Below, one piece after another: positions 17,664 through 31,719 of a DNA stretch of 64,000 bases (the stretch's first letter is position 1; every line of letters starts with the position of its first letter). The notes beneath the pieces were generated by a model. That model saw only the letters and a list, made by a program, of their open reading frames with translations. It was not told where the DNA came from and searched no databases. This DNA comes from Cladophialophora immunda (taxonomy: Eukaryota > Ascomycota > Eurotiomycetes > Chaetothyriales > Herpotrichiellaceae): assembly GCF_000835495.1 (NCBI RefSeq), contig NW_015622541.1, forward strand, positions 2,232,001 through 2,296,000. The letters are read 5' to 3'. A program made the position numbers and the translations under genes.

Positions 17664-19331
17664 CTACAGTCGTGCTTTCACTTTGCCTTCGACCTCCTTC
17701 GCGTCCCTCTTGGCCCATTCCTTCATCAGTTTCCGCACAATCTTGCCGCTGGCCAGCTTGGGCACTTCATCGATGAACTGGACGCCGCCGGCCAACCGTT
17801 TGTGCCTAGCCACCTTGCTTGCCACAAAAGCTTTGATGTCCTCCTCGGTCGTCTTGCCCTTGGCCCGCTCTTGCAGAACGACATATGCTCGCGGGAGCTC
17901 TTCGCCGTGAACAGTGATCCCGACAGCAGCTGCATCTGCGACGTCATCATGCTCAAGCAGAACGGCCTCTAGTTCCGCCGGCGCCACTTGCAAGCCGTTG
18001 ACTTTGATAAGCTCTTTCTTCCTGTCGACGATCCACCACTTGTTGCCCTTGCAGACGCCGACGTCGCCGGTCTTGAACCAGCCGTCCTCGGTCTTACTCT
18101 CCTTGGTGGCTTGTTCGTTTCTCCAATAGCCAAGCAGCATCTGTGGCCCCCTCAGCCAGAGCTCGCCCGGCTCGCCTTCCGCCGTCACCTCGTTCCCTTC
18201 CTCATCCATCAGCTTCGCCTCGGTGTTAGGCAGCAGATACCCGATCGAGCCGGTTAGATCCTTGGCCATTCCTGGCATCATAATGCCGGCACATGTGGTT
18301 TCAGTCATGCCCCAGCCCTGGACTACAACCACGTCGAATCGCTTCATGATCTCATTCTGCAAATCACTCTTCAGCGGTGCTGCGCCACAAAGAATTTGTT
18401 GGAGGCTGCTAATGTCGTACTTGGCCGTTTCGGGTCGTTTGCTTAGCATGACAAGAACGGGCGGGACCAGTTGAAGAGTTGTGATTTTGTAGTTTTGGAT
18501 GTGCTTCAAGAAGTCTTCGTATACGAACTTGGGCATGACATAAACCGGGACTTGTAGACGGCAGGCAATGTTGATGGTCCATAACTGCGAATAGGCGTGA
18601 TACAGTGGAAGGAACGCAAGCCAACGTTCAGGGCCAGGATCTTGTTCGGAGTACTGGGTGCCCTCGTATTTGTTGAAGATGGTTTGCGCAGCGTTCGAAA
18701 TGAGGTTGCGATGCGTAATGCACACACCTTTGGGCAGGCCAGTGGTTCCACTCGAGAAGTTGATGGCAGCAACAGTTTGCAGGGCAGCGTCCCCTTCAAG
18801 AGGATCCCACTTCCAGGATTCAGCCTCTGATTCTGAGGCGACCATTGACCGCCAATCCCTGATGCCTTTCGTGGTTGGAGATTCGGCATCGGAGAAGATG
18901 AAAAGCCTGTCTAGAGGGATATTGGCTTGTTTGGCGGCAGCCACACCGGTATCGAGCAAGGAAGGATGGATGAACACAACTGCGGCCTCGATTGCCTTCA
19001 TCTGGTGGGCGACCTCGTTGACCGTGTAGATGGGATTGGCGCCCGTAAAGAAGCGCTTGGACCCGGCGGCAGCAAGATACACCATTGGAACAAAGAGATG
19101 GTTCGGCGTGAAGACCATGACCGCTTGTTGCTGTTTGACGCCCAGTCTATCGAGACCAACTGCAAATCTCTTGACCCAAGATAGCATCTGGGCTGGTGAG
19201 AGGCTGTTGGAGGGATTCTCGGCATCTATCCATAGCGGCTTGTTGGATGGCGTCTTCTCAGGAGGGAAAACGTAGGAGAGAATGTTACATTTTGGAATAT
19301 CCAACGGAGGATAAGGGGACGTGTAGGGCAT
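17664..19331 (-). CDS. 4-coumarate-CoA ligase-like acyl-CoA synthetase, peroxisomal
   Basis: An AMP-forming ligase that activates a carboxylic acid (aromatic or medium/long acyl) to its CoA thioester. Intronless, 555 codons, ATG at 19331. It shows the P-loop SSGTTGLPKGVCITHRN, the adenine-binding GWGMTETTCAG, KTGDVGV, the hinge DRKKELIKVNGLQVAP, and the catalytic-lysine region PKLASGKIVRK. The protein ends in ARL, a variant of the PTS1 peroxisomal import signal, so the acyl-CoA probably enters peroxisomal beta-oxidation. Fungal 4CL-like enzymes include true phenylpropanoid ligases and fatty-acyl ligases; the sequence does not decide which. Confidence 0.93.
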   Translation of the reverse strand: MPYTSPYPPLDIPKCNILSYVFPPEKTPSNKPLWIDAENPSNSLSPAQMLSWVKRFAVGLDRLGVKQQQAVMVFTPNHLFVPMVYLAAAGSKRFFTGANPIYTVNEVAHQMKAIEAAVVFIHPSLLDTGVAAAKQANIPLDRLFIFSDAESPTTKGIRDWRSMVASESEAESWKWDPLEGDAALQTVAAINFSSGTTGLPKGVCITHRNLISNAAQTIFNKYEGTQYSEQDPGPERWLAFLPLYHAYSQLWTINIACRLQVPVYVMPKFVYEDFLKHIQNYKITTLQLVPPVLVMLSKRPETAKYDISSLQQILCGAAPLKSDLQNEIMKRFDVVVVQGWGMTETTCAGIMMPGMAKDLTGSIGYLLPNTEAKLMDEEGNEVTAEGEPGELWLRGPQMLLGYWRNEQATKESKTEDGWFKTGDVGVCKGNKWWIVDRKKELIKVNGLQVAPAELEAVLLEHDDVADAAAVGITVHGEELPRAYVVLQERAKGKTTEEDIKAFVASKVARHKRLAGGVQFIDEVPKLASGKIVRKLMKEWAKRDAKEVEGKVKARL

Positions 19332-20255
19332 TTTTGCTGGCCGGCTCTTGAATGAGAGTAGATCAGTTAGAAATGCTGCAGTGGTCCAAGATTCGAGCGA
19401 AGTCGAGGAGATGTCGGAAGAATATCAATCGTCAGGGCGGCATCCAGCATAAAGCCGAGTCGTCCGCGCTCTGTCCAGTCGATGGGGCGGGCTGGAGATA
19501 GACATCCACGGGCCACTCTTCTAGTCTGGGGGGCGATAGGCATTCTTGAGGCCGCAAGAGAAGGATAATGACTTCCGACATATAACCTCGGTCGAAGCTG
19601 AAGGAGATGGGGTTGAAAATGTGGAGGTTGGAGGCTGGAGGGCGGGATGCCGGCCACATGGCCGGAGAAAGACGGGCGCAGTTTGTGCTTGAGGGATGAA
19701 TCGCCCACCGGAGGCGTCGGTGGTTCATGGATGTCCGCAGTGCGTAGGGGTTCGCTGGAGTCGATGGCGAGGAGAGGGTTAGTGCTGTCAAAGTCATGGC
19801 AGGAGAGGACCTAGGTGCGTATGTAGAGGTCAGTCATGCGTACCGTGGCATGGTACAGCTGGTAATGATTTCTCGATTCTTTGTAGATGGAGGAGCAGGG
19901 TGTCACGACCTTGGCGAGTACTTGGTGCCTTGTACCCTCCGAGGCTAACAAGGACCCCTGAGCTGCACCTTGAGCTATGAGGGGCGCCTAATCGGGCTAC
20001 CAGTGAGATCTCTAGGTAGAGTACTCGGTACAAACATACCTACCTAGGCACTGTAATCTCTGTCGCGCAGCTCCATGATAACATCCCTGTCTTCCTGTGA
20101 GTTGCAGTGTCAGCTAAAACTGACTGATAGTGGTCTCGTCGGAGAAGAAGATTTCCACCTACTTGGGTCAATCGTTGCGGAATCTCAAATACGTATCGAT
20201 CGTTTCTGATCTGAAATCCTGGAAGTCAGTGTCGAATTCTCATGCACAGGCGCCA
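19332..20255. other. intergenic region, no gene seen
   Basis: About 920 bp holding the ligase promoter and the 3' side of the kinase gene. It contains several TACCTAGG-type motifs (for example near 20041). Open frames at 19367-19797 lack homology features. Confidence 0.45.
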
Positions 20256-23200
20256 TCAGTGGGAAGCATTTCTGACTTGTTCACGAAACACCAAACCAGG
20301 AAACCTCATCGTGAGATACTTTTCCAAATCTACCCAGAGAAGGTTGTAGACGGGTATGGACTCCGCTACAAGTGTCCCTCGATCGTCGTCGTGTCTTTGG
20401 AATGGTTGGGTTCTTCGCCGTCGAGGGAAGCCCCAGCTGGGAGGTTCTCTCTTCTTCTCATGACCCGTATACGTGGGCTGAATGGCAGAGAGAGGCCCTG
20501 CAGTGCTTGTACGAAGCGTCACGCTGTCTGCACTGAGGGCTCCGGAGCTCTTGGACAAGATCTCATTCAGCTTGGCCCAAAGCAGCCTCGACGTTAATCT
20601 TTTCTTCGCTGGTACAAGGACTGATGAGTCCAACAGCTTCAGGATCTCGGGCGTCACGGTATCGCGCCGTGCGCTCAGAGTCCGTCGGGTCACTGCCGTG
20701 TTTGTTAATCGTCGGTGCCACTCTTTCACCTCCTCCAAGATATTTTCGCCGTCATGAAAGGAGTCAGTCTCGAGGTTGCCTTGGTTGTTTCCAGCCGCGC
20801 TGAGTCTTGCCGCGTGAAACTCCCTCACGCCGTCGTATCCCATTACCACGAAGCTTGCGACGATGCTCAGAACGCACCCAAGTGACCAGACATCTTGGGC
20901 TTGGGCTTCGGGTAGGCCGATCATTTTATCTTTGTGAAATTGACTGGTTTCTGGGGCACCTGTGGTGAATCGGCCATGAGCTAAGTTCTCTTTGCTTGTC
21001 TTGAGGTTACAAACCGCAAGTGAGATTTCCCACCCATGCTTCCATAGTGACGGGAGCCGTGTGTTGCTTGGTGAGCACTGCAAGGCCAAAGTCGCACAGC
21101 TTGAAGAGCGGTTTGCGTTCAGAGTCTGCAAAAACAAGAATATTTGAAGGTTTTATGTCTCGGTGGCATCTGTAGGATGAGACCTTTTCAGCATGCGACC
21201 CTGGGAGGATTAGATCATCTCACCCTTCAATGACCAACTCGCCCTTCTGGAACCGGTGGAGCAGCGAAAGAGTATGGGCGACCTCAATTACTCTTTTCCA
21301 GAAAAATGTAATGCTTTCGGGGGAATCTGGGGGAAGCGTGATTTCCAGGTAGTTCTCCAAGTCGCCTAATTCGGCGTGGTCCAGGAGCACGCTGCACAAG
21401 TCACCCTGCTGGACTATGCCGAGACAGGGACAAATGCCCTCATAGCCATCCGGGAACTCTCTCATAAGACGGTAGGCCGTCAGTTCCCTTGCAGCTGCCT
21501 GCAATCGGGGATTTTCGGACTCAAAGGCCACCGTATGCGCTATAGAGTTCCACCGTTCTGAGGACGCAACAAAACCCTTAAACGAGTATGTTTTCATCAC
21601 CCAAAATTTCTGCCTGTGTCAGATCCTTCTCCTTCACACTCGCAGGAATCAAAAGTGCGCAGATACAGACCTTTGATTGAGAGTCGCTCCCTCCTTTGGA
21701 TACGTTGTATGCTTCATAGCCCTCTATCCTCTCGAGCCGAACGCCCCATCCCTCGGAAAGGACATGGAGCCTGCGAAACGGCAGAATGTCCCTGGCATCG
21801 AGTATGGAATCGCCAATCACGGGTCGAACCAAGAAACGCCACTGCTCTTCAAAAAAGTCTGGCCAGAAATCGCAATCTCTCAAGGGTTCTGGACACGAGA
21901 TCGTGAACGGAAGGCGAGAGTCCTGCAGTGATATATGTCCGACGAATAGATGTATGAACCCCAACTCGCCAATGTTCAGAAGGATGTAGAAGACCTTTAG
22001 ATACTTGTTCTTGATAAGGAAAGGATCGAGGCCAGGCGGTATAAACCCTGTATATGCATACATTAGCAATCGATGGATGAGGGAGTCGTCCCGAAGCATC
22101 TGGTCTTCGAGAACAGCATCCGGCACAAAGCTACAGCCCTCTCCTCTGGAAAGGCGAATTCCACCCAGACTCTTTTCGGCAAGTGTACGTCTTGTTGTTT
22201 GGCTAGTATCGCAGTCAGCAAGAATGAACTGCGATCCTTCGGCGGAGTCTTACAGTTCATAAGCGTTAGATATGAAGGGTTTGAGTATCGGGTCAGAAAG
22301 CTGTTCCTCCATCGTTGGAGCACCAAGAGGGTCTCTGAGAGCATCACCTCTCTGGATCTTTGTGAAGACAGGAGCCCAGTCATGGTAGGGGATCTCCTCG
22401 CTGAACAGAATTTCGGAGTCTGAAACAAACATCTCCGGATCGACCTGTTCATCAAGCCCCGCGACATCCTCAGCAGGAGAACTGAGCATGAAATTCTTCA
22501 CAGTACTTCGACTCCCGCTTGCTAATGCTGAATCTGCAGAAATGCTTTTAGAACGGTCACCGTCATCTTTCGTAACCTCGAGTGGCCCATCTGGAAGTGG
22601 CAGAGACTTGAAAGCCACTTGCTGAAGATGCTGATTGACGTGCTCCTCTATGTTTCCAGACGTGTGGCCGCAAAGGGGACAGGAATCGAAGATCTTCTCA
22701 ATGAAGAAGACACTGTTGTTGGTGATCAACCTCATCTGCGATTCTGTATACTGCCCCGGATGCTCAGTTCTTAAATGCGACTCGAATTCAGTCGCTGTTT
22801 CGTACATCCCACCGTGGGCTCTTGTATTGCAGCTCCATCGGAGTAAATGCCGTGCACGCATGTGGTCTTTCCAGTCCTTGCTATTTGCGTACAGCACATC
22901 ACCACTGTCGCAATTGTCGAAAAGGCAGACATACGGCTCGGCATCGTGCTTGACATGCTCGCTAGGGTGTTAATGGTCAGAACGTTCACTTGCTGCTACT
23001 GGAACAAGTGGATGCTCACTGCCAGTCTTTCAAGTCTTTGAATTTACTCGTAGGAAGAACAAGACAACAATAAGGACACTCAAAGTCGCTGCCGTTCATC
23101 ATCGCTCGAGGTGGGGGTACGATCTCCAGTTCATAGCTCCCAGCAGGCATTTCCGAGATTTTCGTAATGCGTGAACGAGCCATAGATTTGCGGAATTTCT

Positions 23201-24195
23201 CTGGATCTGGAGCCGTGCTGGATAGGCTGCTGTACGCGACGCTCGCAGGATGCCTAGGTCTATCCTCGAGTGGCTCTCTGGGAAGGTCACTTCCACCGCT
23301 GCCTGTGGGGTTGGCAAGGGGCGCCTTAGCCTGAAGAACTGCGTTTTCCATATGATAATCGAAAAGGCCCCGCCGTTTCCCTTGGTTTGCGCGACGGTGT
23401 TCGATGCGCAGTCGTCGCTGTATCATTGCCGCCACCAAGCGTTCGAGGAGCAAGCGCAATGATTCGTCCTCCGGGGTTGGTCCAGCTTCACTATCACTTG
23501 AGTCCCCTTCCGTACGAATGGTTGCAATATTACTGCCAGCCGGTATCTCAAACTCACCTTCAGGCGCAGCACCTTTGTATTTTGTTTGCTTGGGGCGCAA
23601 GGCTGGGAAGTCGCGGAGGATCCAAAATTCGAAAAGATGCTTGAGGGTTCTCGCATATTCATCTTCTAGGGACGGCTGAAACCTGCTGACGTGACTTCCT
23701 AGACATGCCCTTCGGATAATATTCGAAAGTCTGTAGAGCCAGCTCGTATGGTCATGGATTGCCCTGAATGCCGGTTCTGTCTCGCTGAGAACCCTCTGAT
23801 GTTGATCTTCGTGGTCAAGCCAAAGTGGAGATTCATAAACGGCACTGTCCTTTAGTCTCTGGATTACTGTCTAGAGTTAATGGGGACGTATCTGCTTCCG
23901 TGCTCTTGGCTGACCTACTCTCATTGAGTCTGTCGGAGATTACTTCGAGATGATCCAGTACCAGCTCTTGCGCCTCCGGGAGGTCTTTGAGACGATAGTC
24001 TAACGATGCGTGAATGTGTGGTGGAAGAGCCCCGATGTTCGACGCCCATAGTCTTAGTCGCCCGAGTTCATCTCTCATTTGCGTCCATGCAGCCTGCTCT
24101 TGTGCATCCTTTAGTACAGTTAGGGCTTTCTCAAACAGCACGAAGCAGAATTGAGCTCCTTGAAAAATAAGGCGTTCGTCAGGATGATTGTCCAT
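20256..24195 (-). CDS. C2H2 zinc-finger/serine-threonine protein kinase fusion, fungal type
   Basis: A large fungal-specific signalling protein with four parts. (1) An N-terminal helical domain starts at ATG 24195 and contains GRLRLWASNIGALPPHIHASLDYRL. (2) A serine-rich linker follows. (3) A block of cysteine/histidine fingers runs about 23090-22600: ECPYCCLVL, EHVKHDAEPYVCLFDNCDSG, HMRARH, and CPLCGHTSGNIEEHVNQH. (4) A protein kinase domain has the beta-3 lysine in VMKTYSFKG (about 21590), the catalytic CHRDIKPSNIL (about 21155), the metal-binding CDFGLA (about 21090) and GAPE (about 20955). About six introns are needed, all with workable splice sites, among them GTAGGT after LNE, GTGAGC inside the finger block and GTAAG after NAYEL. 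The glycine-rich loop is degenerate, but the catalytic residues are present. It is divergent from the DUF7580 protease. Confidence 0.8.
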
Positions 24196-24636
24196 GTCGA
24201 TGCAAATATCGCTTGAGGAGCCAGCAGCGATGCGAGGATGCCACCCTCTCTCGCTGCGTTTGGAATATTGACCTTTGTTGAATGTGCTATTACCGAAGAG
24301 TTGATTTATTGTTCTCAACCGCGGACCTGGCGTTCACCGCGCGCCCATCCTTTCGATTCCTGCTTCCACAGAGATAAGGCTTAGAGACCAAGTGAGGCTG
24401 GTTGCAACTTCTGGCTGAATAGACAAAGCCAATGGGGTTTAGCTGGTTCAAGTTTGCCCCTCGCCTGCCGTGATCCCGATCGCTATGGAACGGCGCGTAG
24501 CGAGCTGTCCAAATCACTCCGCTTCAGCTGCATGCTTGGGAACAGCAGCCAGCATAACTTGACGAAACAGACTATGCCTTCGACAGAGTCTGTTGGTTCG
24601 GCTCATTCCAAGTGAAGCAGAGCACCCTCTTTGAAA
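24196..24636. promoter_or_regulatory. divergent promoter between kinase and protease genes
   Basis: About 440 bp separate the two start codons, so both promoters must lie here or overlap the 5' exons. No binding motif was recognised. Confidence 0.5.
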
Positions 24637-27600
24637 ATGCCAGCTGTCTTCTCGACTGAGAGCGGGGGACGGGACAAGGACTTCAAGCCTTTAATGTTCG
24701 ACAATTTCGAAGCCAAGATTGCTTCTTTATCCGCAGTTCTCCACGACTTCAAACAAGTCTGCAGGATCTTTCGATCAGCTACTCGTGAGGGGGAGCAAGT
24801 GGCTCGAGAGTTCTGGACCACCTTAAGAAGCGCTGTTGTCATAGCGCAAGAGCATGTGTCGACGTTGGCAAGCAGTGGGAGCAGCAGCGGTGGTGGTGTC
24901 TGCGCGCTGGTAGACCGTATCCTCGATTCCCTGGAGAACATTTTTGATGACAACAATGTCGGTAGCAGAGCCACGGCACTGGCTGTATGTTCCTCATTCT
25001 GCTCTATCCTGGAACAGCTGCTTATGGTTGGCTTAGTCGTCGGGAACGAAACGATATAGTCGCCTGGAGATTGTCCATCACCATCTCCACAACGTCGACT
25101 CTCCCAATAAAAGCCTCGTGCTTCTCTTGTCGGTGCAAGATCTTCTGGACTCCAAAAAAGCGCACCAAGTCAAGCAGAGTATTGAAGAATGGGTCGACGA
25201 CTTGGAGAACCTTGATGATGATCAGCTGGAGCCCATCCTCCCGCCGGAGCAGCCGCCTCGTATCAACCAACTCGGCAACGTCAGCGAATTGGCCCAGTTG
25301 ACCTATACAACCCTATTTGGGCATCTAGAGAATCTTGCCACATGTCACAAGCATCAACAGCACGCTGCATATGCCATGCTCGCGACCTATTCCGAGTTGG
25401 AAGAAGACTACGAGGACTTTCATTTTGACTTGGTCTTCTCCGTGGACGGCAGCCAGGCATATTGGGAAGAGGTGAGAGTCCACAGTTTCAGAAGCGAGTA
25501 CGTCTGTTTTCTGTCATGCCTGATGCTAAACGTCGGCTCTCAAGGACCGGCCACCGTTATGGTCGTTTGGCAGTCTGCTAATAGGGGTGTAGTGCCCAGA
25601 GTGGTGTGCGCTGGGCTCGAATAGGTCCGGAGTCAAAGAGAATCAAGGACTGGCTCCTTCCCAGACCGATGTCAGTACGCCAGATTTGCCACTCCCTGGG
25701 AAAGAAGGATCTCTCAAGGTCTCGCCGTCGGAACTGGTTACAAAAATCCACCCAAGGCTCACCAATGCATGAGATATGGGATCACCAACCGACGAATCGA
25801 CAGTTCTTGCCATATGAACACTACCGACTGATCTCCTACGCAGACTGTCTCTCAAACGAAGTGGGACCGATGGTTAGTTTCTCCAAGCTCGTTCTGGCTG
25901 TCATCCTCAGTTACTCCTTGTTTTATCTTTGCGAAGGTCCATGGCTCCCGAGTCGCTGGCCAAGACATGGTATCAAATTCTTCCGGGCAGGCAGCACAAC
26001 GTTCCTGCGACCGCTGTTGTACGTACCTATCTTTTCTGGCTATCCGGACACTGCACAAGCTTATGAGACTTATCACCAATACCCTGTCCTGGTGGGATTC
26101 GCGACAACTCTTCTAGAGATTCACCAGGGGCGGACGCTACAGTCAATCTTAGACTTAACGGAAGATATCACTGATGTTGACGACGAATGGGCTAGAGCTT
26201 GTGAGGCCTACGACAAGTGTAAAAAGAATATCTCAGAAACACAATACAAAGAGGTCATCGAAGCATGTTTGAATGCACGCTTTGAGCTCCAGGAACTGTG
26301 TGAGGGCCAGGAGTTCCAGCAACAAATATTCCACAAGATAGTGGCACCTCTCGTCACCTTGCTGGAAGAAGCTTTTGGGAACTTCAGCCCCATGAGTGAT
26401 CTCGATGCGCAAGCCTCGCGCCTAGACCTAAGCACAGGTCTACTTGTCACAGAGGTCCAAAAATCGCAGGATGCCCCACGATACACCTTGTACAAGATTG
26501 ATCGGTTAGATTCCTCAACCAACCCCATTTTGACCGCACGGCAGGGTAAGGCGTCAGCCTCCGGGACGACATCTCAGACTTTGGTGTTGTCGGATAGCCT
26601 CTATGGGGAGGAAGAGCCACTTTCAGAGTCATCTGCTGAGTAAGTACTTCCCCTTGCAACATTGCACGATGGTTTGGTGTCTTTTCGTAGTCGGTACCGG
26701 CTGTCGGAGCCTTCCAGACCCCAATGCGAACCTTTTTTAGGTAGCTTGACTTTGATGCTTACGCAAAACAGGTGCTCTCATACCGACCGGTGGTTCGACG
26801 CCTTGCATGCCGCCGACAGTTTCAGGACCCTGAAGCGCCTCAGTCTCGACGACACAACTCGGGTCAGAATTGCAATTCTCGATACCGGCCTGGACCGCAA
26901 CCACGGGCTTGTGCGGGAGCACAAGGAACGAATTAGAGCCGTGTGCGACTGGGTCGACGGTGACGGTTCAAACGACGATGACTGGAGCGGCGACGAGGTC
27001 GGGCACGGCACGCACATTGCATGCATTATTCTTGCCAACGCACCGAATGCAGACGTGTTTATAGCTCGTATCAGCAAGACCCGAGCCCTCAGACATAGGC
27101 ATACGCTGCCAGTTGCCAAGGTGAGACATAACCCAATCTGAATTGCCCAAGATGATGCCAATCCAAAATCTAGGCGTTGCAAAAGGCCAGAGACCGGTGG
27201 GAAGTCGACATCATAAACATGTCATTTGGCTTTCGAGACGCATCTCCGATAATCGACGACGAGTTGAAAAAGGCCATCAACCAGGACATCCTCGTGTTTG
27301 CGGCCGCCTCCAACGCCGGGGGCAATCTGCCACGCTCGTATCCTGCGTTTCGCGATCAAGTCTTTGGGATCCATTCGACAGATGGTAGAGGCAATCCATC
27401 CAAATTCAACCCCACGCCGCTCAAGGACGGCAACTTCAGCACTGTGGGCGAGCTGATTGACTCGGCGTGGCCGAGTAAGGATCGGATGGGCTCTTCAGCA
27501 GTTTCCGTCTTCAGCACTCGGAGAATGTCTGGGACGTCGTTCGCGACGCCAGTTGCCGTCAGCATTGTCGCCCTCTTGTTGGATTACTTTGGACAAAACA

Positions 27601-27782
27601 TGCAGGATGAGGTGACGATCTTGAAGATGAAAGAGTTCAACGGCATGAGAAGAATTCTTGCATTGATCTCCAACGAGAGGCAGGGGTTTAACTACATGAA
27701 CCCTTACACCTTTTTACAGCAAAGCCAGGAGGACATTCGGCGGAGTATTCGTAACGCATTGAATATGAAAACGCTTTCATAG
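24637..27782 (+). CDS. DUF7580-subtilisin (S8) serine protease, fungal death/allorecognition type
   Basis: A cytoplasmic-type protein of about 953 residues with no signal peptide. The model has five exons: 24637-24984, 25037-25471, 25600-26639, 26691-27120 and 27174-27782. The 25472-25599 boundary is the least certain. The N-terminal 500 residues or so are helical and DUF7580-like (LPRPMSVRQICHSL, then LSYSLFYLCEGPWLP, then YPVLVGFATTLLEIHQGRTL). The C-terminal subtilisin domain has a complete catalytic set: Asp in AILDTGLD, His in GHGTHIA, Asn in FAAASNAGG and Ser in GTSFATP. S8 proteases of this kind, including HET-Q2, are encoded next to fungal gasdermins and cleave them. Here the gene ends 108 bp from the gasdermin-like gene. 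Confidence 0.85.
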
Positions 27783-27890
27783 AACTAACGCTTCAAGAGT
27801 AGACAAGCTTTCAGGGAGAGAAAGAGCGAGACCACGTCGGAGAGTCACTCACTGCTTTTCCAGGCAATCCACTCTCGGCTAGTCAAAAGC

Positions 27891-28715
27891 TCAATCCTCT
27901 TCGAAGTCGGTTGATTTCATGACGACCACTTGTTCCTGGTCGTCAGCAACAATTTCCCCAGAGCCCCGAACGTCTTCTGCAACAAAATCGACATCTTCCT
28001 CGGCGGAATCGTCGTCCTCGGCGTACATCGCCCCAGTATCGTAGACCTTGGAGTCGACGGCAGAACCGTCTTTCACGCACAGCTCCAGCACTCTAAACGC
28101 GAAGACGAAGTCATCCGAGCCCTCCCAGCCGTGGCTCTGGCTTGTGCGAGACGTGGGGTTGATCCTGGCTCCCACCGAGCCGGGCACGCCAATCGCGGGC
28201 GTCGCGTCGACGCCGGCATCGAGACTGAAGCCGAATTCCGCAGACCGGCTGCTTTTGGCGCTCGGCCCCGTCACGGTCTTGACGCCGTTGATCATGAAGA
28301 CCCTCTTCCGCCGGAAGCGCCTGTGCTTCAGGTAGCTGCGCACGCGCGGGTCGTTGAGCCTCGCCCGGAGATACTGCTCGGTGGGCCACAGCTCGACCGT
28401 CTCGAGGGCCTCGAATTGGAACGACGCGGCGTCGGCGCGGCCGAGGTCGACCCCGGCGTCGACGCCCACCCCGGCGATCTGCTGCAGGAACTTGGTGTAG
28501 ATCCCGAACGCGCCCGTCGTGGCCCTTTCGTGCGTCCATTCGACCTTGGTCTTGCCCGCCAGCTTCGTCACGTCGGGCAGTTCATGCGGCGCGACCGCGA
28601 CGAGAGGCGGCACGGGGTCTCTCGGGGAGGTTATGATGTTGCCCAAAGCTATGGGTCCTCCTGGCGGGTAGTCCCAGCTCGGGGGGTAGAAATACTTCTT
28701 TTGCTGATTGGCCAT
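27891..28715 (-). CDS. gasdermin-like pore-forming cell-death protein (candidate)
   Basis: A 274-residue intronless protein with no signal peptide or hydrophobic helix. I infer a gasdermin-like fold from pattern only. An amphipathic, glycine-rich strand (about residues 77-92) leads into the element around VELWPTEQYL, then a helix and the strand VFMINGVKTVTG. A second glycine-rich amphipathic strand pair (about 150-175) is followed by DFVFAFRVLELCVKDG, placed as the conserved Y-G-hydrophobic strand that closes the gasdermin N-domain. A highly acidic tail follows (21 Asp/Glu in the last 59 residues). The length is close to HET-Q1, and an S8 protease gene faces it tail-to-tail, as in het-Q2/het-Q1. 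In that system cleavage removes the tail and frees the membrane-permeabilising domain. It could be an unrelated fungal family; structure prediction would decide. Confidence 0.62.
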   Translation of the reverse strand: MANQQKKYFYPPSWDYPPGGPIALGNIITSPRDPVPPLVAVAPHELPDVTKLAGKTKVEWTHERATTGAFGIYTKFLQQIAGVGVDAGVDLGRADAASFQFEALETVELWPTEQYLRARLNDPRVRSYLKHRRFRRKRVFMINGVKTVTGPSAKSSRSAEFGFSLDAGVDATPAIGVPGSVGARINPTSRTSQSHGWEGSDDFVFAFRVLELCVKDGSAVDSKVYDTGAMYAEDDDSAEEDVDFVAEDVRGSGEIVADDQEQVVVMKSTDFEED

Positions 28716-29377: not shown

Positions 29378-30898
29378 TCAGATCTCGTCGTAACAGCGTC
29401 TGGACGTTGATGAGGCATCGTCACCGTCCCGTGCCGTTTGTGGCGCCAGAGCATTCAAATCGCCGCTGACAGCTTGCAGCAGGCCCCGCTGGTAGGCATC
29501 GAGGTAGGCAAAGCGTTTGAACAGCTTTGCAAGCTCATCTTCCCGAATCGATTTGTGCGTACCCCAGCAATCCGGACGCTCCGTCTCTAGAATTGCTGTA
29601 AGAAACCACCTGCGATCGCCTGTCTCGCAAGACATGGCACCAACGAGAAGCACCCACAGGTGGACATCTCCATATCTGTTCCAGTCCCCCTGTTCAATGC
29701 CTTCGAGTCGACGCTTCAATTTGGACGCGAGGACTTTGCATGTTCGCCTGCGACCAGTCACGGTCATTACCATGAATAGCCATATGATCAAGACGATCCT
29801 GATGGCGTCCGTTTTGCCATCGTCAATTTCGAGTTCCAAAAGTCGGTGCCTGAGTGCGCTTGTTCGCAGAAGGAGCCAGTGAAGGGAAGCTTTAGATCCA
29901 GCAGGGGCATTTCGATCCGAGGCCTCTGATTCAGACTGCCGTTGCATGGTGTCGACAGTCGCAGCCAAATCCAGAAGCACCTGGTGCATCTGGGGTGGCA
30001 GAATCTCAATATACTTCGGCTCTTGAAACCATTTCGTGGTAATATCAGTATGGCTACCAATAACGTCGCCATGTTCCAGGTCCAGGTGGCCAGGGTCGAA
30101 ACACGAAGCAGGAAACAGTGGCTTCTGGAGTAGTTCTGCTGCCAAATAGCCGTCCCCGATCACAATCCATTCCCGTAGTGAAGGGTCGATTCGCTCAATG
30201 CCTCCGATATGCAACAGAAGGCTTCTGGCTGCCTTGAGATGAACGAGAGCCGACTGAAGTTCGTATCGGTAGAAGTCTGTGACGGCCATTTGATGTATGT
30301 CGAAAATAAGCCTCTGGTCAATAGGAGGCGACGACCTGAGATACCGGCGAATAGCGGCGATGGCTTTTGTTGCCATTTGACTCGTGGTTTCGTCGTCGCG
30401 GTTCATCAGCTCAAAGTATTGCATTTGACTGGCCATGGAGGCCAGCAATGTGTAATAATGCACCTCGTTCTCTAGACATCCCTTGACCAGAGGGAGGACG
30501 TCATTCTGAAAGGTATAGGAATGGTCGTCCCGCACTTCGGAGTGCCACGTCCTAGGGTGGGAGACATGGATGAAATACTGAAGGAGACCATGAGCTTTCC
30601 GGTCCACATTGACAACGGTCGTTGCAAAAGGGTCAATGATGCGCAACTCGTCTGCCGGCACACGAGGGATGCTATGGACCTCACGTCTATTGCTGGTGCC
30701 AGTTTTGATACCCGGATTGACTTGAATGAATGGTAGTTGCTCGCTCTTGTGGATTTGGGCATGAGGCGACAACCGTCGTCGATGCATGCTTTCGATCTGG
30801 GCATGACGGTGGATCAACCGCCTCTCCTGATCATCGCTTCTTGAGAATGACTGGGATTGGGGATCTTTGACCACGAAAAGATATCGAGACTCACCCAT
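29378..30898 (-). CDS. fungal-specific transcription-factor-like protein lacking a zinc finger
   Basis: 506 residues, intronless, ATG at 30898. The N-terminus (YLFVVKDPQSQS..., then RRLIHRHAQIESMHRRRLSP) is the usual opening of a large fungal family annotated as transcription factor domain proteins without a DNA-binding motif. The remainder is helical with the middle-homology pattern: DPFATTVVNVDRKAHGLLQYFIH, YYTLLASMASQM, SALVHLKAARSLLLHIGG. No Zn2Cys6 or C2H2 finger is present, so direct DNA binding is doubtful. It may act as a partner of other regulators. It is not obviously linked to the island to its left. Confidence 0.75.
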   Translation of the reverse strand: MGESRYLFVVKDPQSQSFSRSDDQERRLIHRHAQIESMHRRRLSPHAQIHKSEQLPFIQVNPGIKTGTSNRREVHSIPRVPADELRIIDPFATTVVNVDRKAHGLLQYFIHVSHPRTWHSEVRDDHSYTFQNDVLPLVKGCLENEVHYYTLLASMASQMQYFELMNRDDETTSQMATKAIAAIRRYLRSSPPIDQRLIFDIHQMAVTDFYRYELQSALVHLKAARSLLLHIGGIERIDPSLREWIVIGDGYLAAELLQKPLFPASCFDPGHLDLEHGDVIGSHTDITTKWFQEPKYIEILPPQMHQVLLDLAATVDTMQRQSESEASDRNAPAGSKASLHWLLLRTSALRHRLLELEIDDGKTDAIRIVLIIWLFMVMTVTGRRRTCKVLASKLKRRLEGIEQGDWNRYGDVHLWVLLVGAMSCETGDRRWFLTAILETERPDCWGTHKSIREDELAKLFKRFAYLDAYQRGLLQAVSGDLNALAPQTARDGDDASSTSRRCYDEI

Positions 30899-31719
30899 AC
30901 TGATCCCCTCTGTGAGACAGATATGTGCGGTTGTGAAGATGGAGCCGTCGGATGAGTGATTGGGAGGAAGTAACTGAAGGGGGGTGGCCTTGGTTAATGC
31001 ATAGCGGGTGTTTCGTCTCCCTGTAAAAACAGCGGCGCCCTGTGCTTCAACTATCCTTCTACCTATACTGTTAGCTGTCTCTCAATAAAGCGGCGACCTC
31101 CCTCTATTCCTCCTCCTCGGCTAGACGTAGGGTACATGGTGTGTCAGACTGCGCCAATCAATCTTCAACTCGGCTCGCCATCGATGAAGCCAGGGACGTT
31201 CTCGTGAAAACTCAAGAAATTCAACTACTTGTGGTACCAAGTCATTGACTGGACAGTTGCAATGCAGTACACGCCGTGCCTCTGTGAGTGGAGGGGACAA
31301 TTGCGAGAAGGTGAAAAGGTGACTTGGAGGTGAAAAGAGCAAAATGCCAGGGACAAGCAGCAACGGGCTGGTGGAGCTGGTGAGGCTGGTGAGGCCAAGG
31401 CACGGCTGCGCTTAAGCTTAACCAGGGCGCAGGCGGGTGGCGGCCTAGCAATCACAAGCCTCACCAGCCCAAGGCGCCTACACCAACAACCCCCCGAATA
31501 CACCCCAACACACCCACCACACCAACCAAACTCCCTTGTTGTGCCTCTCCCTTCTCATTGACCGCATAAGGCCTGCCGCTTGCCTAGCCCGAAGTTGTGA
31601 CGTACTTCATCGGCGGGCACTGAGCGACAAGATGGCGATGCTCCTTTTACATCTTCTGAGAACCTGTCCTCCTTCGGAATCAAGGTCCAAGACCAGCTCC
31701 ATCCCCAGCACGGCCCGCA
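30899..31719. other. divergent intergenic region, no gene seen
   Basis: About 820 bp between two divergent start codons. CT-rich and CA-rich tracts (about 31490-31550) precede the PhyH gene, typical of fungal core promoters. Confidence 0.5.

What the first reader, a model, noticed from the sequence alone, without database searches (positions are those of the whole stretch)
20256..28715. Candidate three-gene cell-death island: kinase/C2H2 fusion, S8 protease, gasdermin-like protein
Seen: three fungal-type genes without housekeeping neighbours between them; kinase and protease divergent over about 440 bp; protease and 274-residue gene tail-to-tail 108 bp apart. Known: fungal gasdermins (RCD-1, HET-Q1) are activated by proteolysis, and HET-Q1's partner HET-Q2 is an adjacent subtilisin. 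Inference: this locus is such a module with an added upstream sensor/kinase, which I do not know to be described.
Basis: partly seen in the sequence, partly recalled or inferred. Interest (0 to 1): 0.9.

Follow-up and report, generated by a model that had tools for sequence, protein, structure and literature searches.

The report
Three-gene fungal gasdermin death module
A black-yeast fungus carries a pore-forming gasdermin beside a protease that probably switches it on, plus a head-to-head third gene whose relatives recur with interchangeable tails beside related genes, suggesting a modular sensor-and-executioner system for cell death in fungi.

Summary
The 274-residue protein is a fungal gasdermin by sequence, profile and fold searches. 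The middle gene encodes DUF7580 plus an S8 protease with intact catalytic motifs; the third a C2H2 module plus a kinase. A gasdermin beside an S8 protease is already known (HET-Q1/HET-Q2 type).

The third gene is not incidental. All 4 gasdermins found in this genome have an S8 match within 1 kb and, beyond it, a divergent relative of the C2H2 gene. Relatives of all three window proteins lie on contigs of one length (57,109 bp) in another source.

More widely, 15 of 18 C2H2-module loci have a divergent DUF7580 gene. The C2H2 genes' tails differ. The DUF7580 partners carry either a shared helical N-terminus (9 of 10 non-S8 pairs) or an S8 protease (5 pairs, 4 with a gasdermin), never both.

Best reading: a head-to-head sensor/executioner pair with swappable ends; this locus is its gasdermin form. 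The kinase is only one of several tails. Function is inferred. Ten paper searches found no description; the key primary paper was not held.

The parts
20044..24195 (-). C2H2-module/kinase gene, nine exons, 1228 aa; head-to-head partner, proposed sensor
   Evidence: gene model; contains deposited protein P0005 exactly; Pkinase E 1.6e-13 on the earlier 1205-aa model and 7.2e-16 on P0005
22254..22961 (-). exon with the C2H2 module shared by 18 loci of the genome
20700..21740 (-). kinase domain (approximate limits, introns included): VMK, CHRDIKPSN, CDFG, APE
24196..24636 (.). 441-bp stretch between the two divergent start codons
24637..27782 (+). DUF7580-S8 protease gene, five exons, 937 aa in the favoured model (acceptor after exon 3 uncertain)
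25274..26367 (+). DUF7580, kinase-like domain without HRD (limits mapped from residues 196-528, introns included)
   Evidence: E 4.3e-36; kinase resemblance; no HRD motif in DUF7580 frames
26863..27608 (+). Peptidase_S8 domain with DTG, GHGT and GTSFAT motifs (limits mapped from residues 650-880, one intron included)
   Evidence: E 6e-22; motifs
27891..28715 (-). gasdermin gene, 274 aa, single exon, tail to tail with the protease gene
27894..28064 (-). acidic C-terminal tail of the gasdermin, residues 218-274, net charge -17; proposed inhibitory piece

Best explanation
The locus is a three-gene pyroptosis-like cell-death unit. The gasdermin is held inactive by its short acidic C-terminal tail. 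The protease (DUF7580, a kinase-like and probably catalytically dead domain, fused to an S8 domain with intact catalytic motifs) cuts off that tail, and the freed part makes membrane pores that kill the hyphal compartment. The protease is restrained and triggered by the head-to-head C2H2 protein, whose variable tail (here a kinase) is where the signal enters, as bait or sensor or as an enzyme acting on DUF7580. Genome-wide the C2H2 and DUF7580 genes form a head-to-head pair: one partner varies its input tail, the other its output end (a helical N-terminus, or an S8 protease that in 4 of 5 cases has a gasdermin beside it). Shown here: domains, gene order, recurrence, motif conservation. Inferred: cleavage of this gasdermin by this protease, the trigger, and the sensor role.
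For: Gasdermin identity. S8 beside 4 of 4 gasdermins found. Divergent C2H2 gene at 4 of 4. S8 catalytic motifs in 5 of 5 S8-type partners. Acidic tail in 5 of 5 gasdermin sequences. Relatives of all three proteins on contigs of 57,109 bp. Divergent C2H2-DUF7580 pairs at 15 of 18 C2H2 loci, with about 0.12 of 18 adjacent pairs expected by uniform placement. Helical N-terminus in 9 of 10 non-S8 pairs and 0 of 5 S8 pairs. Kinase and DUF7580 in one frame at C1:5155-5158 kb. Known precedent for protease control of fungal gasdermins: reviews.
Against: No function was tested. At C8:712 kb the C2H2/DUF7580-S8 pair has no gasdermin in the fetched stretch. Several C2H2-gene tails at other loci match chromatin or nuclear proteins, which also fits a regulator. 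Co-divergence of the two partners (r 0.58, n 13) rests largely on one co-duplicated clade (r 0.22, P 0.10 when thinned). S8-type partners are not a clade by distance. 2 of 18 C2H2 loci show no DUF7580 and 1 of 18 is not divergent. The general pairing is seen in one genome only.
Confidence: 0.55

Rival explanations
1. An ordinary two-gene gasdermin/S8 unit; the C2H2 gene is a transcriptional or chromatin regulator of the shared promoter, not a sensor. Its zinc fingers bind DNA and its tails act on chromatin or signalling.
For: C2H2 fingers; the shared 441-bp divergent promoter; tails at other loci that match PAH, Rsc7/Swp82, PHD, LIM and Clr5.
Against: At gasdermin loci the readable tails are a kinase and TPRs, and ankyrin repeats occur at two other loci, which do not suggest DNA regulators; tails vary while the partner stays the same.
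Confidence: 0.2
2. A kinase cascade: the kinase phosphorylates the DUF7580 domain of the protease, as RIPK3 does to MLKL, and the tail is an enzyme rather than a bait.
For: Kinase motifs intact; DUF7580 kinase-like; kinase and DUF7580 in one frame at C1:5155-5158 kb and, by equal frame lengths, probably at C5:2470 and C7:3308 kb.
Against: No kinase domain was found at the C2H2 genes of the other three gasdermin loci, so phosphorylation cannot be the general trigger.
Confidence: 0.15
3. The C2H2 gene is a passenger beside a HET-Q1/HET-Q2 type pair.
For: Published fungal clusters are mostly described as two-gene units.
Against: C2H2 relative beside 4 of 4 gasdermins found (for the three beyond the window, chance about 6e-7 under uniform placement); relatives of all three on contigs of equal length; divergent pairing at 15 of 18 loci.
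Confidence: 0.05

Closest known systems
HET-Q1/HET-Q2 of Podospora anserina and the Q2L protease-gasdermin clusters (Clave et al. 2022, not held; known here through reviews)
   Same: Gasdermin gene beside a multidomain S8 protease gene; short C-terminal tail on the gasdermin
   Different: Third, head-to-head C2H2-module gene recurring at 4 of 4 gasdermin loci; protease N-terminal part is DUF7580. Whether a C2H2 neighbour is in that paper's tables is unknown to me
RCD-1 of Neurospora crassa (solved structures 8jyz, 8jyx, 8jyy)
   Same: Best sequence and fold match of the gasdermin
   Different: RCD-1 death comes from two antagonistic alleles (review passage); here a protease gene is adjacent
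RIPK3/MLKL necroptosis (recalled; review passages)
   Same: Possibly a kinase acting on a kinase-like partner joined to a death output
   Different: The output here is a protease and a gasdermin; the MLKL-like nature of the helical N-terminus at other loci is unproven
Head-to-head sensor/helper NLR pairs of plants (review passages in PMC12258605)
   Same: Divergent neighbouring genes; one partner with varying extra domains, the other the likely executioner
   Different: Neither window partner shows an NB domain; sensing is not shown. That paper reports head-to-head NLR pairs as rare in Sordariales (13 of 225 two-NLR clusters)

Membership tests
Fungal gasdermins | Sequence homology to known gasdermins over the N-terminal domain | tested here: met
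   RCD-1-1 E 4.1e-7 and HET-Q1 8.4e-5 with the single sequence; with a 5-sequence profile 7 of 7 matches under E 0.1 are gasdermins
Fungal gasdermins | Gasdermin fold | tested here: met
Fungal gasdermins | Short C-terminal inhibitory tail | tested here: inconclusive
   A 57-residue acidic tail is present, net -17; that it inhibits is not shown
Fungal gasdermins | Pore formation and cell killing | not testable with these tools
   needs expression
HET-Q1/Q2L gasdermin-protease cluster | S8 protease gene adjacent to the gasdermin gene | tested here: met
   108 bp apart; Peptidase_S8 E 6e-22
HET-Q1/Q2L gasdermin-protease cluster | Catalytic Asp, His and Ser motifs in the protease | tested here: met
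   DTG, GHGT, GTSFAT in the window gene and equivalents at all 5 S8-type loci
HET-Q1/Q2L gasdermin-protease cluster | The protease cuts the gasdermin near its C-terminus | not testable with these tools
   needs co-expression
HET-Q1/HET-Q2 incompatibility system | Strain polymorphism (idiomorphs) and death on fusion | not tested
   no second strain was available here
Protein kinase-like domains (DUF7580) | Kinase fold | tested here: inconclusive
   30 of 31 PDB profile matches under E 1 are kinases, best 9.9e-5; the 50 Foldseek rows shown are kinases but none is under E 0.001 and the model is of low confidence
HeLo/HELL executioners (N-terminal domain of the non-S8 partners) | Profile match to HeLo or to solved HeLo/MLKL structures | tested here: inconclusive
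   no HeLo match for 9 of 9 members in Pfam at E 1, none in the PDB by profile at E 1; resemblance is by eye
Fungal NLR receptors (C2H2 partner) | NACHT or NB-ARC domain | tested here: not met
   none in the window protein at E 0.1. At C8:712 kb a P-loop-like GIDGQGKS is seen in a short frame that was not scanned on its own
Plant-type head-to-head sensor/helper pairs | Divergent genes with a varying extra domain in one partner | tested here: met
   15 of 16 adjacent pairs divergent; differing tails
Plant-type head-to-head sensor/helper pairs | One partner senses and the other executes | not testable with these tools
   needs genetics

The most novel reading that the evidence does not exclude
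Fungi have a class of non-NLR paired immune receptors laid out like plant sensor/helper pairs: head-to-head genes in which a C2H2-module protein carries interchangeable bait or sensor tails, and a pseudokinase-like (DUF7580) partner carries interchangeable executioners, either its own helical killer domain (necroptosis-like) or an S8 protease that fires a gasdermin (pyroptosis-like). The two death styles would be plug-in outputs of one switch.
Probability: 0.4. Interest if true: 0.9.

Novelty: new variant of a known kind. Interest (0 to 1): 0.72.

Why it matters
How the proteases that activate fungal gasdermins are themselves regulated is named as future work in a 2025 review (PMC12881547 section 21). 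A recurrent, genetically linked C2H2 partner is a concrete candidate for the missing upstream component, and the shared pair architecture makes the question testable by exchanging tails and outputs in laboratory yeast or Podospora. If one switch drives both a helical killer domain and a gasdermin, necroptosis-like and pyroptosis-like death in fungi are alternative outputs of one system. It would also give fungi, outside the NLR family, the head-to-head layout that a recent survey found rare among their NLRs.

Tried and rejected
More gasdermins: three of the four as queries return the same four. The C4 one was not used as a query, and more distant ones could be missed because this genome takes no profile query. 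A gasdermin at C8:712 kb: none in the fetched stretch by profile. S8-type partners as one clade: not supported. Mirror-tree as proof of co-inheritance: rests largely on one clade; it used 13 loci, and C1:338 and C4:646 kb were dropped for partial domains, while C1:5151, C7:2084 and C3:3627 kb were not in it. vWA label for the C6:2030 kb tail: Pfam E 0.2 only, no PDB match. Phosphorylase label: PF01048 E 0.022 at C8; the C4 tail has no such Pfam match but aligns to C8's. HeLo identity of the helical N-terminus: not confirmed. The second structure job went to a paralogue's single-exon DUF7580 protein (L027), because the tool's description admits only proteins read straight from DNA and the window's protease is spliced. 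C7:2084 and C3:3627 kb, the two C2H2 loci without a DUF7580 match, were never fetched, so a diverged partner there is not excluded. Most exon junctions rest on splice-site scoring; only the 3' part of the kinase gene is backed by a deposited protein. Locus counts come from capped candidate lists and are lower bounds.

Literature: ten searches. 'DUF7580' is in 0 held papers. In the listings and passages I saw, nothing describes the C2H2-DUF7580 pair. Clave et al. 2022 (PNAS) is not held, so its cluster tables, where a third gene could be listed, were not seen.
Full report
What is there. The window is bases 2,232,001-2,296,000 of contig C1 of a 42.2-Mb genome in 39 contigs. A deposited protein found with the last kinase exon, P0005, is named 'hypothetical protein, variant [Cladophialophora immunda]' and lies on a contig of 8,230,860 bases, the length of C1. 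I infer that species, an ascomycete of the order Chaetothyriales. Three genes fill 20,044-28,715: a nine-exon kinase/C2H2 gene on the minus strand, a five-exon protease gene on the plus strand 441 bp away head to head, and a single-exon gene tail to tail with the protease gene at 108 bp. The kinase gene ends at 20,044, not 20,256; the model contains P0005 exactly. The acceptor after the protease's third exon is uncertain.

The protease has DUF7580 (E 4.3e-36) and Peptidase_S8 (6e-22), with the D, H and S motifs intact. The third protein has a kinase domain (E 1.6e-13) with CHRDIKPSN and CDFG, preceded by a C2H2 module that Pfam scarcely recognises (E 0.077) but that defines a family in this genome.

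The trio recurs. Whole-genome queries give four gasdermins. All four have an S8 match within 1 kb, and all four have a relative of the C2H2 gene on the far side of the protease gene and divergent from it. At all four the protease carries DUF7580; at C6:2034 kb the match is below the curated cut-off (E 1.1e-4). The large protein database held one relative of the gasdermin beyond the genome's own. That one and the relatives of the protease exon and the kinase exon (72, 67 and 49% identity) are each on a contig of 57,109 bases; I take this to be one contig, though its sequence could not be read. The kinase end is the least conserved of the three.

The third gene's tail changes. The same C2H2 module is joined to a kinase in the window and to TPRs at C6:260 kb (E 7.4e-19). 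At C4:3141 kb the tail is phosphorylase-like only by alignment to a weak PF01048 match at another locus, and at C6:2030 kb a vWA label rests on E 0.2. So the constant part of the third gene is the module, not the kinase.

A wider pattern. Two C2H2 queries give 18 loci and the DUF7580 family gives 25 matches at 24 loci. At 15 of the 18 C2H2 loci a DUF7580 match from that list lies within 6 kb. One of these, C1:5151 kb, is on the same strand. Adding C6:2030 kb, where DUF7580 was found at frame level, gives 16 adjacent pairs, of which 15 are divergent: 15 of 18 loci. Uniform placement would give about 0.12 adjacent pairs among 18. C7:2084 and C3:3627 kb show no DUF7580. In the other direction 16 of 24 DUF7580 loci have a C2H2 locus within 6 kb. 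Five of 15 S8 loci lie beside a C2H2 gene, and the four gasdermins are at four of these five and at none of the other ten S8 loci (P 0.004).

Two kinds of partner. A profile of four helical N-termini finds the same domain upstream of DUF7580 on the same strand at five further loci (E 1e-34 to 2e-11): 9 of 10 non-S8 pairs, the four seeds included, and 0 of 5 S8 pairs (P 0.002). C2:1166 kb is the non-S8 pair without it. The domain looks HeLo-like to me, but neither Pfam nor a PDB profile search confirms that. Tails of the C2H2 genes at nine of the ten non-S8 pairs match Pfam: ankyrin (two loci), LIM, PAH, Rsc7/Swp82, PHD with further C2H2, Clr5/PLU-1, DUF7514 and DUF6590; C1:338 kb has no match. 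LIM and DUF6590 lie in a following separate frame, so their place in the same gene is inferred.

DUF7580 resembles a protein kinase. A profile of 11 sequences finds kinases among solved structures (30 of 31 matches under E 1, best 9.9e-5), and the 50 Foldseek rows shown for a low-confidence model are kinases, though none is under E 0.001. No DUF7580 frame has an HRD motif. A kinase and DUF7580 (E 2.6e-5, below the cut-off) share one frame at C1:5155-5158 kb, and equal frame lengths suggest the same at C5:2470 and C7:3308 kb. Such fusions hint that kinase and DUF7580 act together.

Mechanism. By analogy with HET-Q1/HET-Q2, where the protease is reported to remove about 40 residues after F238 (review passages), the S8 domain should cut the acidic tail here; Y231 and F244 are candidates, conserved in the 72% relative. 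The C2H2 protein would restrain or trigger the protease. Changing tails on one side of an otherwise constant pair fit a sensor or bait with integrated domains; in this locus the kinase may instead act on DUF7580. A regulator of the shared promoter remains possible, the more so because several tails at other loci match chromatin or nuclear proteins.

Against, and limits. No function was tested. The mirror-tree signal (r 0.58, n 13) falls to r 0.22, P 0.10 when one co-duplicated clade is thinned, and to r 0.29, P 0.06 when it is removed. S8-type partners are not closer to one another than chance (P 0.21 and 0.50). C8:712 kb has the pair with S8 but no gasdermin in the fetched stretch. The general pairing is one genome deep, and all locus counts come from capped candidate lists.

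Compared with what is known. A gasdermin beside an S8 protease is established: the reviews give about 80% of fungal gasdermin genes clustered with proteases, about 60-63% with S8 (PMC10197012 section 15 and passages, PMC10989679 passages, PMC12881547 section 21 and passages). The 2025 review speaks of two- or three-gene clusters and of protease domains fused to 'predicted kinase-like domains', which may well be DUF7580. The one three-gene cluster I saw specified there is the amyloid one of Chaetomium globosum. None of the passages I read mentions a C2H2 partner of gasdermins. Integrated decoys, kinases among them, have been proposed for Sordariales NLRs, and head-to-head NLR pairs reported as rare there (PMC12258605 passages). 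I file the locus as a new variant of a known kind; the general pair, if confirmed elsewhere, would be more than that.

Noticed in passing
L031 (C8:709-717 kb): C2H2 gene followed by a weak phosphorylase match, a P-loop-like GIDGQGKS and TPRs, head to head with a DUF7580-S8 protease gene; no gasdermin in the fetched stretch.
   Followed up: partly
L015/L016 (C1:5155-5158 kb); C5:2470-2472 kb; C7:3308-3311 kb: A kinase and DUF7580 in one frame at C1 and probably at C5 and C7, judged by equal frame lengths.
   Followed up: partly
L029:2092-5721 (C6:1534-1537 kb): A 1210-residue frame with a HeLo match (E 8.4e-4, below the cut-off) and DUF7580 (E 9.7e-12).
   Followed up: no
L027:5027-7585 (-): C2H2-module gene joined to an Rsc7/Swp82 chromatin-remodelling domain (E 1.7e-52), head to head with a helical-DUF7580 gene: a possible bait domain or a regulator.
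   Followed up: partly
P0004: Another DUF7580-S8 protein, 34% identical to the query exon, from a 27,830-bp contig of the same source as P0002; its neighbours could not be read.
   Followed up: no
17667-19424 (-): AMP-binding enzyme (E 3.6e-76) next to the kinase gene, an ordinary metabolic neighbour.
   Followed up: partly
29381-31081 (-): 567-residue frame beyond the gasdermin gene with no Pfam match at E 0.001.
   Followed up: no
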